From the NCBI RefSeq assembly GCF_900109665.1, contig NZ_FOAO01000015.1, positions 62,001 through 126,000 on the forward strand: a DNA stretch of 64,000 bases, written 5' to 3'. The translations under genes were made by a program, and so were the position numbers. The stretch's first letter is position 1, and each line of letters opens with the position of its first letter. Shown here one piece after another: positions 11,272 to 17,243 of the stretch. Source of the DNA: Blastococcus sp. DSM 46786 (GTDB lineage: Bacteria; Actinomycetota; Actinomycetes; Mycobacteriales; Geodermatophilaceae). Below the pieces are notes generated by a model. That model saw only the letters and a program-made list of their open reading frames with translations. It was not told where the DNA came from and ran no database searches.

Positions 11272-11385
11272 CCGGTCGGCGCGGTCGGGACGCCGGAGCC
11301 GGTTCACAGCCGGGTCCGCGGCGAGGACAGTGGGGGTCGCGGCGATGCCGCAGGGGCGTCGCCTGATCCGAGAGGAGTGGGTGGC

Positions 11386-12003
11386 ATGTACGCCCGGTCC
11401 ACCACGATGAGCAACGTCCGCGACATGGACGACGGGATCGCCTACGTCCGGGACACCGTCATGCCGGCGGTGCAGGGGATGAGCGGCTGCGTCGGGCTGT
11501 CGATGGTCTGCGACCGCCCGGGCGCCCGGTGCATCGTCACCACCGCGTGGGCCGACGACAGCGCCATGCACGCCAGCGCGGAGAGCATCCGGGACATGCG
11601 GAACCACGCCGCGGAGATCTTCGGCGCGGTGGCCGAGGTGGACGAGTGGGAGATCGCGCTGCTGCACCGGCGCAGCGAGGCGCCCGAGGGTGCCTGCACC
11701 CGGGTCACCTGGACCCGTGGTGACCCGGCGGACACCGACCGCTCGGTCGATGCGGTCCGGACAGGGGTGCTGCCGCGCCTGGACGAGCTGCCGGGCTTCT
11801 GCAGCGTGAGCCTCCTGGTCGACCGGCGGACCGGGCTCGGCGCGCTCGCCGCCACGTACGCCAGCCGGCACGACATGGAGGCCTCGGCCGAGACGGTGCG
11901 CGGCATGCGCGAGCAGATCACCCGGGAGCTCGGCATGGAGATCACCGGCATGGCCGAGTTCGACCTGGTCCTGGCCCACCTGCGGGTACCCGAGACGGTG
12001 TGA
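11386..12003 (+). CDS. Tandem antibiotic-biosynthesis-monooxygenase-like (ABM-fold) protein
   Basis: 205 residues made of two similar halves of about 95 residues. Each follows the ferredoxin-like ABM pattern. Half one has DGIAYVRDTVMPAVQGMSGC, VGLSMVCDRPGARC and SAESIRDMRNHAAEIFG. Half two has VDAVRTGVLPRLDELPGFCS, VSLLVDRRTGLGAL and SAETVRGMREQITRELG. Single-domain ABM proteins dimerise; a tandem copy would fold as a pseudo-dimer. No catalytic residues can be assigned. The ATG at 11386 is preferred over the GTG at 11377 because AGGAG (11373-11377) stands 8 bases before it. It stands alone between the helicase gene and a repeat-bearing gap. Confidence 0.65.
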   Translation: MYARSTTMSNVRDMDDGIAYVRDTVMPAVQGMSGCVGLSMVCDRPGARCIVTTAWADDSAMHASAESIRDMRNHAAEIFGAVAEVDEWEIALLHRRSEAPEGACTRVTWTRGDPADTDRSVDAVRTGVLPRLDELPGFCSVSLLVDRRTGLGALAATYASRHDMEASAETVRGMREQITRELGMEITGMAEFDLVLAHLRVPETV

Positions 12004-13485: not shown

Positions 13486-15697
13486 TCAGGTGCGCGCCAG
13501 GGCCAGCAGCGTCACGTCGTCGGTGCGCGGCGGGTCCAGGGCGGTGAGCACCGCGTCGAGCAGCGCCTGCGGTGCCACCGGGCCGCCGGCGACGGCGGCG
13601 CGCAGCTCGTCCAGCCCGGTGCTCAGCCCACCGGGCCCGCGCTCGACGAGCCCGTCGCTCACCAGCAGCAGGCGGTCGTCGCCGGCCAGGGTCAGCCGCG
13701 TCTCCCGGTAACCGGCGGCGTCCAGCAGGCCGAGCGCGGGACCCCGCCCCTCGTGCAGGTACCGGCGCCGCCGCCGGTGGCGTGCAGCACCGGCAGGTGC
13801 CCGGCGTTGGCGATGACCACCTCACCGGTCGCCGGGTCGAGCTCGGCGACGACGGCGGTGGCGAGCTTCCCGGGCAGCAGCGCGCCGATGACCTGGTTGA
13901 GCCCGTCGAGCGCAGCGGCCGGGCCGGCCGCCCGCAGCAGGTGGGCGCGCAGCGCGTGCCGGAGCTGGGCGGTGATCGCCGCGGCGGCCAGCCCGTGCCC
14001 GGCGACGTCGCCCAGCACGACCGACACCCGGCCCCCGGGCAGCGGCACCAGGTCGTACCAGTCACCGCCGACGACGTCGTCCTCGCTGGGCAGGTACCGC
14101 GCGGCCAGGTCGACGCCGGGCACCTTCGGCAGCTGCTCCAGCAGGAGCGTGCGCTGCAGCGCGGTGGCCAGCCGGTTGTCCTCCGTCGCCCGGTTCGCGG
14201 CGGTCGCGGTGAGCAGGGCGGCCAGGCCGCAGGCCGCCGCCACCTCGTGGTCGAGCCACGGCTGCGACCGTTCCCGCACCGTCTCGCTCCAGGCGTCGAA
14301 CGACCGGCGCGGGCTCAGCCGCGGCCCGGCGTCGGTCTGCGCGGTCTTGGACGTGTGCGGGTTGCCGCCCCACGTGATCTCGCGCAGCGTCTCCGGCCGG
14401 AACCAGGCCAGGTAGTCACCGCGGCCACCGGCCACCTCGGCGACCAGCACGCCGCTGGCGGTGGCGGCGAGGTCGGCCGCCGCCGGGACGACCCGGCCCA
14501 CCGCGTCGGTGGCGCGGACCCCGGCCGCCAGCAGGTCGTGCACCAGCGGGCCGATCCGCTCGGCCGGGGGCGTCGTCCCGAGGAGGTGCAGCTGGCCGCC
14601 GAGCCGCACGGCGGCGCCCGCGGCAGGCAGCAGGTCCAGCGCGGTGACCTCGCCGTCGGCGAGGGCCGCGGCGAGGCCCCGCGGGGTGCGGCCGATGACC
14701 GCGGCCAGCTCGGCCTGGCGCTGCGCCACCTGCACGACGCCGCCCTGCTCGCCGGCGTCCACCTTCGTCGGCAGCAGCAGCGAGGCGGGGCGGCCGAGGA
14801 ACTCCGCGGCGGTGCGGTCGGTGTAGGAGGGCCGGTGCGGACCGGCGTAGTGGTGGCAGGCGATGAGGCCCCACAGCTTCCCCCGGTCGACCAGCGAGAC
14901 CGACATCGAGGCCCCCACCCCCATGTTGGCCAGGTACTCCAGGTGCACCGGCGAGACGCTGCGGAGCATGGCGCCGGAGAGGTCGAGGGTGCGCCCGCCG
15001 ACCGTCGGGGGCTCCAGCGGCACCGGCCGGTACGTCGCGTCGGGGATCAGCCGCATCCAGTTGGTCGCGTACAGCGCCCGCGCCTGGGCGGGGATGTCGC
15101 TGGCCGGGAACCAGAGGCCGAGCAAGGGTTCGAGGTCCGCGCGGCGGTCCTCGGCGATGACCTCGCCGTTCCACTCCGCGTCGAAGCGGTACACCATGAC
15201 CCGGTCGAAGCCGGTCAGCGCGCGCACGTCGCGGGCGAGCACGCCGGACAGCTCGTCGAGCGTGGCGCCGGCCGACAGCCGCTGCAGCACCGTGGGCAGC
15301 CGGCGGTGCCAGGCGCTGCCGGCCTCCTCCGCGCCCCGGACCGGCTCCACTCGGTGACCAGCAGGCCGTCGGCCCGGTGCACCACGAGGTCGACGTCCTC
15401 CCTGCCCACGCGCACCCGCAGCGGGTTCAGCTCGGCGAGGTCACCGGCGAGCCCCGCCCGCAGGCGCTCGGCGTCGGCCGGGTCGAGCAGCTCGTCGAGG
15501 GCGCGACCGGCGACCGGGCCGCCGAACAGGTCCGCGGCGCCGGCGGAGGCGACGACCACCGCGAGATCGGGCTCGCTGACCGCCAGCAGCGCGCCGTGCG
15601 GCTGCACCGCACCGGGGACGGCGATCGGCTCGTCGGCGCAGCGGGCCAGCGCCTCCTCGTCGCCGGTGGGCGCCTGGCCGGCCGCGGAGCTCGTCAC
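13486..15697 (-). pseudogene. Bacteriophytochrome with SpoIIE phosphatase output, two frameshifts
   Basis: Three reading frames join into one bacteriophytochrome. Frame A (GTG at 15697) holds the PAS domain, with Cys20 in RCADEPIAVPGAVQPHG, the position of the biliverdin-binding cysteine of DrBphP. Frame B (about 15349-13767) holds GAF (PASDIPAQARALY; LWGLIACHH), PHY (PHTSK; SPRRSFDAWSE, the PRxSF tongue) and the start of a PP2C/SpoIIE domain (SEDDVVGGDWYDL, VLGDVAGHGLAAAA). Frame C (to TGA 13486-13488) completes SpoIIE (YLHEGRGPALGLLDA, LLVSDGLVERG, DDVTLLALART). Adding one G at about 15349 and one at about 13766 restores a continuous protein of roughly 735 residues. Either this is an early pseudogene or the bases are sequence errors. 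Intact, it would dephosphorylate the STAS protein encoded just upstream. Confidence 0.75.
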
Positions 15698-15707
15698 CGC
15701 GGCGACG

Positions 15708-16069
15708 TCACGTGGCGTCGCGGTTGACGGCGGGGCTGGGCACCTCGCCGACGGAGTTCACGATCGGCACCACCGCGCCGAGGTCGAGCAGGTCGATCGG
15801 CAGCCGGACGGGACGGTTGCCCCGCGGGGCCACCACGTGCAGCTCCGCGCCTGCGGCGGCGGCCTTGCGGGCGATGGCGATGAGGGTGCGGGAACCCGAG
15901 GAGTCGAGGAAGACCGTCGGCGTCAGGTCCACCACGATGCCCGCGTAACCGCTGCTCAGCAGGGCCTCGGCGGCCTCCGTCAGCTGCGGGGCCGTCGCGA
16001 GGTCCAGCTCACCCGTACGGTGAGGGCCGGACGCCCGGCGACCGTCGCACGTTCCACGTCGAAGAGCAC
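15708..16069 (-). pseudogene. STAS-domain anti-sigma-factor antagonist, one frameshift
   Basis: The start is GTG 16069, placed by a GGAGGTG Shine-Dalgarno 4-6 bases upstream, giving VLFDVERATVAGRPALTVR. The frame is then lost at 16012-16014 (CCC on the plus strand). One extra G restores GELDLATAPQLTEAAEALL and the rest of a STAS domain, including VFLDSSGSRTLIAIAR with the serine expected to be phosphorylated. Corrected length is about 120 residues, normal for SpoIIAA/RsbV. A shorter uninterrupted frame from GTG 16076 replaces the first strand with nonsense. The gene precedes the phytochrome-phosphatase by 10 bases and is divergent from the RsbW-like kinase. Confidence 0.7.
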
Positions 16070-16141
16070 CGTTCACCTCCCTCAGCGCGTCGTCCCGGAC
16101 GTCCGAGGGCAGGCCACCGCGCAGGAGGAGGCTGGACGGCC

Positions 16142-16573
16142 ATGAACATCGACTTCAGCGTGCGCCTGCCGACCGACGCGCACAGCGTGCCGCTGGTGCG
16201 CGGTCTGCTGCGGCAGGCGCTGGAGCACCTGACCGTCCCGCAGGCGGTCGTCGACGAGATCGTCCTGGCGCTGACCGAGGCCTGCGCGAACGTCGTCGAC
16301 CACGCCGCCGACCACGAGGCCTACCAGGTCGACGTCGCGATCGACGACGAGACGTGCCGGATCAGCGTGGTGGACGACGGTGCCGGGTTCGACCCCGCGA
16401 CCGCCGCGGACGCCCCCACCTCCCCCCTGGACGACCGCGGGCGCGGGCTGGTGCTCATGCGGGCGCTGGTCGACCAGCTGCAGTTCGTGCGGGACGACGA
16501 CGGCCGGCACCGGGTGACCTTCGAGAAGCGGCTGGTCACCCAGCCGCACCTGCGGCTGCTCGACCCGCGCTGA
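16142..16573 (+). CDS. RsbW/SpoIIAB-like serine kinase (anti-sigma factor)
   Basis: 143 residues forming a single GHKL ATPase fold. The N box is DEIVLALTEACANVVDHA (about residues 38-55), G1 is VVDDGAGFDP (about 77), and the G2 lid is DDRGRGLVLMRALVDQL (about 98). These features define RsbW/SpoIIAB anti-sigma kinases that phosphorylate a STAS antagonist and hold a sigma factor. ATG at 16142 is preceded by AGGAGG 10 bases upstream. Its divergent partner is the STAS gene, and the phytochrome-SpoIIE phosphatase lies next to that, so the three make a complete partner-switching set. No sigma factor gene is in the window. Confidence 0.85.
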   Translation: MNIDFSVRLPTDAHSVPLVRGLLRQALEHLTVPQAVVDEIVLALTEACANVVDHAADHEAYQVDVAIDDETCRISVVDDGAGFDPATAADAPTSPLDDRGRGLVLMRALVDQLQFVRDDDGRHRVTFEKRLVTQPHLRLLDPR

Positions 16574-16577
16574 CCGG

Positions 16578-17126
16578 TCAGCCGCGGACCGGGATGCGGT
16601 GGGGGGCCACGAGCTCGGCCAGTGCCTGCCCCCACCGGCGGGCACGGTCCTCCTCGCCGTCGACCAACGGTCCGGCGACGTCGGCGACCAGGAAGTGCTC
16701 GGCGGGCGCGGCCAGGGTGGCGCCCAGCCGGCGAAGCAGCTTCTCCTCCGTCCGCGCCGCGTGGTCCAGCGCGGTGAGCAGCACCGGGTGGTCCGTGCGG
16801 GTGTCGAAGGCCGCCGCCTGGATGCCGCGCGGCAGGCGGACGGCATCCAGCCACTCGTGCAGGCCGAAGGTGATGTCGGGGACCCCCGCCGCGTGGTCCC
16901 GGACCGCGCCCTCGCGGGTGGCCGGGCGCGGCATGCCGAACGCGTGCGTCGGCACGCCGACCACGAGCAGCCGCACGTCGGCGGGCAGCAGCATCGGGGC
17001 CTCGCGCGCGCAGGCGACGTCGACCTCCAGCCGGCTGCACAACCCGTGGGCCACGGCCATCGCGACCCGTCTCGCATCGCCGAACACCGATTCGTAGACG
17101 ACCAGGGCTCCGGCCACCGACCTCAC
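16578..17126 (-). CDS. Flavodoxin-domain protein
   Basis: About 182 residues. The core begins ALVVYESVFGDARRVAMAVA, in which the YESxFG(N/D)(T/A)R loop is the FMN phosphate-binding loop of long-chain flavodoxins. RLLVVGVPTHAFGMPRP is the second FMN loop. ITFGLHEWLDAV and AAAFDTRTDHP match actinobacterial flavodoxin-like proteins. It probably carries FMN and transfers electrons, or is a flavodoxin-related regulator; partners are not evident. The start is uncertain: GTG 17126 is the minimal choice, while ATG 17192 would add 22 low-complexity residues and neither has a well-spaced Shine-Dalgarno. Its stop lies 4 bases from the stop of the RsbW-like gene. Confidence 0.7.
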   Translation of the reverse strand: MRSVAGALVVYESVFGDARRVAMAVAHGLCSRLEVDVACAREAPMLLPADVRLLVVGVPTHAFGMPRPATREGAVRDHAAGVPDITFGLHEWLDAVRLPRGIQAAAFDTRTDHPVLLTALDHAARTEEKLLRRLGATLAAPAEHFLVADVAGPLVDGEEDRARRWGQALAELVAPHRIPVRG

Positions 17127-17243
17127 CGCCTCGCGCGCCGCCTCCAAGGGGGGCGACGACCGTAGGCCCGCGCGCGACCCCGTGGGGCACATCACGCACC
17201 GAACCGTGACCTCCCGCTCCGGCTCGGGGGCGTGTCGTCGACG

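What the first reader, a model, noticed from the sequence alone, without database searches (positions are those of the whole stretch)
13486..16573. Light-driven partner-switching module: bacteriophytochrome-SpoIIE, STAS and RsbW-like kinase
The photosensory half has all landmarks of a true bacteriophytochrome: the biliverdin cysteine position (RCADEPIAVPG), PASDIP, CHH and the PRxSF tongue. It is fused to a PP2C/SpoIIE phosphatase, next to its presumed substrate (STAS) and the opposing kinase (RsbW type). This is a compact route from red/far-red light to sigma-factor release. The combination is inferred from sequence; the sigma factor is not in the window.
Basis: partly seen in the sequence, partly recalled or inferred. 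Interest (0 to 1): 0.72.

Follow-up and report, generated by a model that had tools for sequence, protein, structure and literature searches.

The report
Broken copy of red-light stress switch
A family of desert and rock bacteria keeps a compact three-gene switch that probably turns red or far-red light into dephosphorylation of a regulator; in the strain read here the light-sensor half looks broken, while its relatives carry intact copies.

Summary
The window is a Blastococcus-like (Geodermatophilaceae) genome. On the minus strand lie a STAS gene and a PAS-GAF-PHY bacteriophytochrome fused to a SpoIIE/PPM phosphatase (BphP1); divergent from them is an intact RsbW/SpoIIAB-fold kinase (HAT). 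In this assembly BphP1 and STAS are not open: three single-base frame breaks lie within 2.25 kb, and a promoter-like hexamer invariant in 29 relatives is changed only here. Relatives carry intact copies, so this copy is probably decaying; assembly error is not excluded.

The trio is real. Among 112 family genomes STAS is in 55 of 55 with BphP1 and 0 of 57 without; HAT in 53 of 55 and 0 of 57; 50 of those 53 HAT genes are adjacent and divergent. All 55 carry a heme oxygenase, including the 13 with no match to the second phytochrome-phosphatase (BphP2).

Best reading: a light-input partner-switching module. Light control of the phosphatase, STAS as substrate and HAT as opposing kinase are inferred. 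"Sigma-factor release" is unsupported by linkage; the genome's SigB/F/G-type sigma lies on another contig. The fusion is known from a survey; my searches found no description of the conserved module.

The parts
13486..15697 (-). BphP1: PAS_2-GAF-PHY bacteriophytochrome fused to a SpoIIE/PPM phosphatase; in this assembly split over three reading frames (breaks near 15.35 kb and 13.76 kb)
   Evidence: Pfam on the pieces; three-frame translation; intact 737-aa orthologue L003 and others; window-unique single-base gaps
15708..16069 (-). STAS (SpoIIAA/RsbV-like) gene with a DSSG phosphorylation-site motif; one frame break near 16.01 kb
   Evidence: Pfam STAS/STAS_2; orthologue immediately upstream of BphP1 in 35 of 35 family loci; frame break
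16106..16111 (-). -10-like hexamer of the STAS-BphP1 operon; positions 1, 2, 5 and 6 invariant in 29 relatives, position 2 changed in the window only
   Evidence: alignment of HAT-STAS intergenic regions; consensus promoter scans found nothing here, so the promoter role is inferred
16142..16573 (+). HAT: stand-alone HATPase_c_2 kinase of RsbW/SpoIIAB fold, intact, divergent from STAS-BphP1
   Evidence: Pfam; AlphaFold model and Foldseek, best hits SpoIIAB and RsbW; invariant E46, N50, D78, G80, G82, G100, G102 in 24 aligned sequences

Best explanation
In Geodermatophilaceae this is a light-input partner-switching module. BphP1 binds biliverdin made by a heme oxygenase encoded elsewhere. Red/far-red photoconversion moves the PHY tongue and the long helix that runs straight into the PPM phosphatase. 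That changes the rate at which the phosphatase removes phosphate from the neighbouring STAS protein. HAT is the opposing kinase: it phosphorylates STAS, and it releases its client when dephosphorylated STAS binds it. The client is unknown; the best candidate sigma factor is the genome's SigB/F/G-type sigma, which lies on another contig beside its own RsbW-like gene. In the strain read here the STAS-BphP1 operon is probably inactivated by frame breaks and a promoter change, leaving HAT intact. Shown by computation: the parts, their intactness in relatives, co-inheritance and synteny, conserved residues, frame breaks in this assembly. Inferred: biliverdin binding, light control of the phosphatase, STAS as substrate, HAT as kinase, the client, loss of function.
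For: Domains. Chromophore Cys, PASDIP, CHH, PRRSF and the PPM metal-site aspartates conserved in 34-35 of 35 family loci. Predicted continuous helix 483-518 from PHY towards the phosphatase, the layout that PMC12143880 (abstract and passages seen) proposes for RsbU-type phosphatases. Co-occurrence in 112 family genomes: STAS 55 of 55 versus 0 of 57 (compared by eye); HAT 53 of 55 versus 0 of 57, adjacent and divergent in 50 of 53. Heme oxygenase in 55 of 55 BphP1 genomes, in 84 of 90 genomes with any matching phytochrome and 1 of 22 without, and in 13 of 13 where BphP1 was the only match. HAT model closest to SpoIIAB and RsbW. Decay of the window copy: three window-unique single-base gaps inside 2.25 kb against 9 other candidate frame jumps in the remaining roughly 410 kb of this genome scanned with a coding model; invariant hexamer changed only here; STAS dN/dS on the window branch 0.76 against 0.16-0.21 on sister branches (114 codons, few events).
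Against: BphP1 dN/dS on the window branch is 0.20, not raised above L003's 0.21, so any decay is very recent or the breaks are assembly errors. HAT is missing in 2 of 55 BphP1 genomes and 3.7-8.1 kb away in 3. Two outgroup genomes (L036, L038) keep HAT beside BphP but have no close STAS anywhere (33-41% identity, E no better than 1e-7). No sigma factor is linked. HAT scores far under the curated RsbW cut-offs and L003's STAS under the TIGR00377 cut-off. No biochemistry exists here.
Confidence: 0.6

Rival explanations
1. The module is a partner switch, but HAT's client is not a sigma factor; HAT and STAS gate another protein, and light never reaches transcription through a sigma factor.
For: No linked SigF-type sigma in loci L001-L071 or the window; SigF presence does not follow BphP1 (108 of 112 genomes) and SigF has its own RsbW-like gene beside it; the STAS operon's conserved hexamer looks like a housekeeping -10 and not a SigB/F box (motif knowledge recalled).
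Against: Sigma factors controlled in trans are common in actinobacteria (recalled); the nearest solved folds of HAT are anti-sigma factors.
Confidence: 0.35
2. The three frame breaks are assembly or sequencing errors and the module works in this strain too.
For: Purifying selection on BphP1 continues on the window branch; breaks are single-base; the genome is a 47-contig draft; 2 of the other 54 BphP1 assemblies also show a break; 9 other candidate jumps exist elsewhere in the scanned genome and were not examined one by one.
Against: Three breaks cluster in 2.25 kb of two neighbouring genes; the other non-triplet gaps in the 18-19 kb of aligned coding sequence sit within about 15 bp of others that offset them, or, at the very end of a gene; an invariant promoter-like position is also changed.
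Confidence: 0.38
3. HAT is an RsbT-like activator that binds the BphP1 linker rather than a STAS kinase or anti-sigma factor.
For: In the two outgroup loci HAT stays beside BphP while no close STAS exists; RsbT acts on the RsbU linker (PMC12143880, passages seen).
Against: Best fold hits are SpoIIAB and RsbW; inside the family STAS is kept even where HAT is missing (G021, G026).
Confidence: 0.12
4. BphP1 is no longer a light sensor; the photosensory part is a dimerisation scaffold or senses something else.
For: No heme oxygenase beside BphP1 in any of the 35 family loci.
Against: Tested chromophore-site residues conserved; heme oxygenase kept in 13 of 13 genomes where BphP1 was the only phytochrome matched.
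Confidence: 0.07

Closest known systems
Bacteriophytochromes with a SpoIIE/PPM effector, listed in a phylogeny of phytochrome effectors (PMC9587094, passages seen)
   Same: PAS-GAF-PHY module fused to a SpoIIE/PPM phosphatase
   Different: The passages seen give no STAS or kinase neighbour, no conserved module and no function for the phosphatase type
RsbU/RsbP-RsbV-RsbW general stress switch of Bacillus subtilis (PMC12143880, abstract and passages seen)
   Same: Sensor-PPM phosphatase with helical linker, STAS antagonist, RsbW-fold kinase
   Different: Phytochrome as input; kinase gene divergent; no linked sigma factor; client unknown
SpoIIE-SpoIIAA-SpoIIAB of Bacillus (recalled; fold match)
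   Same: SpoIIE-family phosphatase, STAS with DSSG, SpoIIAB-fold kinase
   Different: Soluble light-sensor input instead of a membrane division protein; no SigF in the operon
PadC phytochrome-diguanylate cyclases (PMC9587094 passages; PDB 5llw)
   Same: Phytochrome output helix driving a dimeric effector
   Different: Effector is a phosphatase, not a GGDEF cyclase
Photocobilins (PMC10979010, passages seen)
   Same: Bilin photoreceptor in an actinobacterium (Saccharothrix) with a suggested link to STAS, SpoIIE and PP2C-like phosphatases
   Different: B12-bilin protein acting through predicted protein interactions, lacking the biliverdin-linking Cys; not a phytochrome-phosphatase fusion
Second phytochrome-SpoIIE of the same genome (BphP2, C12, L002/L105)
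   Same: Same domain order; 40% identity over most of the length
   Different: Directly behind a heme oxygenase gene, no STAS or HAT hit in the 17 kb around it; wider in the family (77 of 112 genomes)

Membership tests
Bacteriophytochrome (BphP) | PAS_2, GAF and PHY domains in that order | tested here: met
   window pieces; intact orthologue L003
Bacteriophytochrome (BphP) | N-terminal biliverdin-binding Cys, PASDIP Asp, CHH His, PRxSF tongue | tested here: met
   Window has all; 34-35 of 35 family loci; residue-level match of L003 to solved phytochromes
Bacteriophytochrome (BphP) | Heme oxygenase available in the genome | tested here: met
   C12:102206-102844, just over Pfam's cut-off (24.3 against 23 bits), no NCBIfam hit; in 55 of 55 BphP1 genomes
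Bacteriophytochrome (BphP) | Biliverdin binding and Pr/Pfr photoconversion | not testable with these tools
   needs protein
SpoIIE/RsbU-type PPM phosphatase | Metal-site aspartates (GDWYD, GDxxGHG, SDG, DDVT) | tested here: met
   Window and 34-35 of 35 relatives
SpoIIE/RsbU-type PPM phosphatase | Open frame over the catalytic domain in this genome | tested here: not met
   frame break inside the SpoIIE domain; intact in relatives
RsbV/SpoIIAA STAS antagonist | STAS fold with phosphorylatable Ser in D-S-S/T/A-G | tested here: met
   LDSSG in window; Pfam STAS over cut-off; TIGR00377 45.1 bits for L003, under its cut-off of 53.45
RsbW/SpoIIAB kinase | GHKL fold with N-box E-x-x-x-N and glycine motifs | tested here: met
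RsbW/SpoIIAB kinase | Curated RsbW/SpoIIAB family score | tested here: not met
   best RsbW model 40.9 bits, cut-off 145; so RsbW-like, not filed as RsbW
Sigma-releasing partner switch | Linked or co-inherited sigma factor | tested here: not met
   no SigF-type sigma in loci L001-L071 or the window; SigF in 108 of 112 genomes regardless of BphP1
Sigma-releasing partner switch | HAT binds a sigma factor | not testable with these tools
   needs pull-down or reporter

The most novel reading that the evidence does not exclude
A dedicated phytochrome partner-switching module kept across one bacterial family: red/far-red light sets the phosphorylation of one STAS protein through a coiled-coil-coupled PPM phosphatase and so releases a client (a sigma factor or a new kind of target) from a divergently encoded kinase. 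Its loss in the window strain would be a natural knock-out of the light-sensor half only.
Probability: 0.4. Interest if true: 0.7.

Novelty: new variant of a known kind. Interest (0 to 1): 0.5.

Why it matters
[quoted passage not shown] neither 'phytochrome' (main text) nor 'bacteriophytochrome' (listing count) occurs in it. A phytochrome-PPM fusion with its likely substrate and kinase next door, in one piece in 52 of the 55 family genomes that have it, is a light-switchable way to test that idea and a candidate optogenetic phosphatase. It would also suggest how non-photosynthetic rock and soil actinobacteria couple light to a regulatory switch.

Tried and rejected
Linked sigma factor: tblastn of the own SigF-type sigma against loci L001-L071 and the window found none. 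SigF co-occurrence gave no signal because SigF is nearly universal. Consensus promoter scans of the intergenic region found nothing in L003 or the window; the hexamer came only from the alignment. A SigB/F-type box reading of the hexamer on the HAT strand was rejected because the central bases vary. Selection test on BphP1: no relaxation, which weakens an old-pseudogene reading. Coding-model scan for frame jumps: most jumps elsewhere look like gene overlaps, the model missed the STAS break, and the 9 remaining others were not examined one by one. L027's genome is not held and was not searched for HAT. BphP2 absence in 13 genomes rests on a search that scored only 9 candidates per genome; I looked beside the heme oxygenase in 8 of the 13. 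Literature: eight searches; for the broad ones only the top 15-20 rows of longer result lists were seen, and text passages were opened in three papers only (PMC9587094, PMC10979010, PMC12143880). None of what I saw describes a phytochrome-SpoIIE with STAS and RsbW neighbours; the library is partial, so this is weak evidence of absence.
Full report
What is there. The window lies on contig C7 of a 4.59 Mb, 47-contig genome. Its nearest relatives at this locus are Blastococcus sp. KM273128 and MG754426 (L003 and L004, about 92% nucleotide identity over 13 kb). On the minus strand are a STAS gene (15708-16069) and BphP1 (13486-15697); on the plus strand, 72 bp from the STAS start, is HAT (16142-16573). 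Pfam gives PAS_2, GAF, PHY, SpoIIE, STAS and HATPase_c_2, all above cut-off.

The window copy is broken. The phytochrome is spread over three reading frames and the STAS gene over two. A three-way alignment with L003 and L004 puts three window-unique single-base gaps inside these two genes, near 13.76, 15.35 and 16.01 kb. Inside HAT and the four other genes that the script checked there is none; one further window gap sits at the very end of the gene at 11377-12003 (the flavodoxin-like gene at 16578-17129 was not in that script's list but shows no non-triplet gap). Pairwise BLAST over 18-19 kb of coding sequence finds the same two BphP1 breaks; the other non-triplet gaps lie within about 15 bp of others that offset them, including a pair in BphP1 against L004. 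Relatives have intact frames: of the 55 family genomes with BphP1, 52 match in one piece and 3 are broken (G000, G011, G029). A coding-model scan of the window plus twenty other stretches of this genome (413.7 kb in all) gave 67 frame jumps. Eleven leave the old frame open more than 45 bp: two are the BphP1 breaks and nine lie elsewhere, where long gene overlaps are not excluded. The STAS break was not seen by that model.

A second sign of decay. The HAT-STAS intergenic region of 29 relatives with adjacent genes contains a hexamer with invariant positions 1, 2, 5 and 6 (T, A, C, T), about 30-38 nt before the STAS start, shaped like a -10 box on the STAS strand. The window alone departs from it, at position 2. 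Consensus promoter scans call nothing there in either genome, so the promoter reading is inference. Branch dN/dS for the window is 0.76 for STAS (114 codons, few events), 0.20 for BphP1 and 0.29 for HAT. BphP1 shows no relaxation, so decay, if real, is recent. I put inactivation at about 0.6.

The module is real in the family. Of 69 loci found by the BphP1 query, 35 are Geodermatophilaceae with BphP1; STAS is directly upstream in 35 of 35, and HAT is adjacent and divergent in 29. HAT is displaced in four (L026, L029, L030, L032); a cytochrome P450 gene was confirmed by Pfam in each gap, and a GGDEF-EAL gene in L029 and an ammonium transporter in L030 also lie there. HAT was not found in the fetched flank of two (L010, L027). 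The genome holding L010 has only a weak HATPase hit (35% identity); L027's genome was not held. Fourteen further loci are phytochrome-SpoIIE proteins from other actinobacteria: STAS adjacent in 1 (L050), HAT adjacent in 2 (L036, L038), with L037, L040, L044 and L050 on short contigs. The remaining 20 gave no SpoIIE hit with my profile; one of them, L067 (Frankia gtarii), is only a partial match, so its type is open.

Phylogenetic profiles. In 112 family genomes BphP1 (at least 69% identity) is in 55. STAS (E at most 1e-18) is in the same 55 and in none of the other 57 (lists compared by eye). HAT (E at most 1e-15) is in 53 of 55 and 0 of 57, adjacent and divergent in 50 of 53 and 3.7-8.1 kb away in 3. 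The Fisher value of 4e-30 ignores shared ancestry and is not a probability of function. Three genera (g1, g2, g3) hold genomes with and without all three genes, so loss or gain as a set seems to recur; some genomes without are incomplete. SigF is matched in 108 of 112 genomes, seven of these by weaker matches (41-57% identity), and so carries no signal.

Light sensing. The chromophore Cys, PASDIP Asp, CHH His and PRxSF residues are conserved in 34-35 of 35 family loci and in the window; residues 16-505 of the intact orthologue align with solved phytochromes (best 6bap, E 6.8e-109). One heme oxygenase gene was detected in the genome, directly upstream of a second phytochrome-SpoIIE protein, BphP2. 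Across the 112 genomes it is in 84 of 90 with any matching phytochrome and in 1 of 22 without, and in 55 of 55 with BphP1. Thirteen BphP1 genomes lack a BphP2 match (only 9 candidates per genome were scored), yet all 13 keep it. In eight of those 13 I looked beside it: six have no phytochrome hit there, one (L127) keeps a SpoIIE remnant and one (L131) a partial phytochrome match. Loss of BphP2 with retention of the enzyme suggests that BphP1 uses its biliverdin.

Switch chemistry. The PPM metal-site aspartates are conserved. The AlphaFold model of L003 BphP1 (mean pLDDT 85.8, pTM 0.63) has one helix, 483-518, running from PHY to the start of the phosphatase, matching the linker-helix layout described for RsbU (PMC12143880, abstract and passages seen). 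STAS has DSSG. HAT keeps E46 and N50 and the glycine motifs in all 24 aligned sequences, and its model (pLDDT 79.4) matches SpoIIAB (TM 0.79 by query) and RsbW best, though its NCBIfam RsbW score (40.9) is far below cut-off.

Output. The genome has five Sigma70_r3 matches. The three scanned against NCBIfam are one SigB/F/G type on C2 (TIGR02980, 297 bits, over its cut-off), one WhiG (over cut-off) and one FliA/WhiG-like (under cut-off). The C7 one looks primary-like by reading its sequence; the C40 one was not read. The C2 sigma lies beside its own RsbW-like gene and a SpoIIE-HATPase-STAS fusion. Nothing found links it to BphP1. I therefore rate "light-controlled phosphatase acting on STAS, opposed by HAT" at about 0.7 and "output is a sigma factor" at about 0.45.

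Evolution. In a maximum-likelihood tree of 65 phytochromes (first 620 residues; the window row is the read-through) the actinobacterial rows form one starred group (99/100). BphP2 joins the Frankia proteins (100/97), and BphP1 joins Quadrisphaera and a record labelled Streptomyces sp. NP160 (100/99). Those two outgroup loci have HAT divergent beside BphP but no close STAS in their genomes (33-41% identity), so the HAT-BphP pairing may be older than the STAS gene's place in the module, or STAS was lost there.

Novelty. The fusion is known from a survey (PMC9587094, passages). Eight searches of the held library, seen as top rows of the listings, showed no description of the STAS-BphP-HAT module or of a characterised phytochrome-SpoIIE protein; Geodermatophilaceae with phytochrome returned no paper. 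The library lacks most subscription journals.

Noticed in passing
G000 C12:102206-105210 (L105:7207-10211): Second phytochrome-SpoIIE protein (BphP2) directly behind the genome's only detected heme oxygenase gene; BphP2 groups with Frankia phytochromes in the tree.
   Followed up: yes
L125-L132: In genomes with BphP1 and no BphP2 match, the heme oxygenase gene survives; six of eight examined have no phytochrome hit beside it, L127 keeps a SpoIIE remnant and L131 a partial phytochrome match.
   Followed up: partly
L026:5997-9266, L029:4094-9260, L030:1565-9287, L032:5958-9255: Cytochrome P450 genes (plus a GGDEF-EAL gene in L029 and an ammonium transporter in L030) lie between HAT and STAS in one subclade; the P450 genes are on the strand of STAS-BphP1.
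   Followed up: partly
G000 C2:3138-6725 (L104): SigB/F/G-type sigma with RsbW-like gene, divergent from a SpoIIE-HATPase-STAS fusion: the genome's likely general stress switch; its sigma factor is matched in 108 of 112 family genomes.
   Followed up: partly
G011 (probably L045) and G029: Two further family assemblies with a frame break in BphP1; whether repeated decay or assembly errors is open.
   Followed up: no
L038: Record titled Streptomyces sp. NP160 carries a phytochrome locus grouping with Quadrisphaera (Kineosporiaceae); the record may be mislabelled.
   Followed up: no
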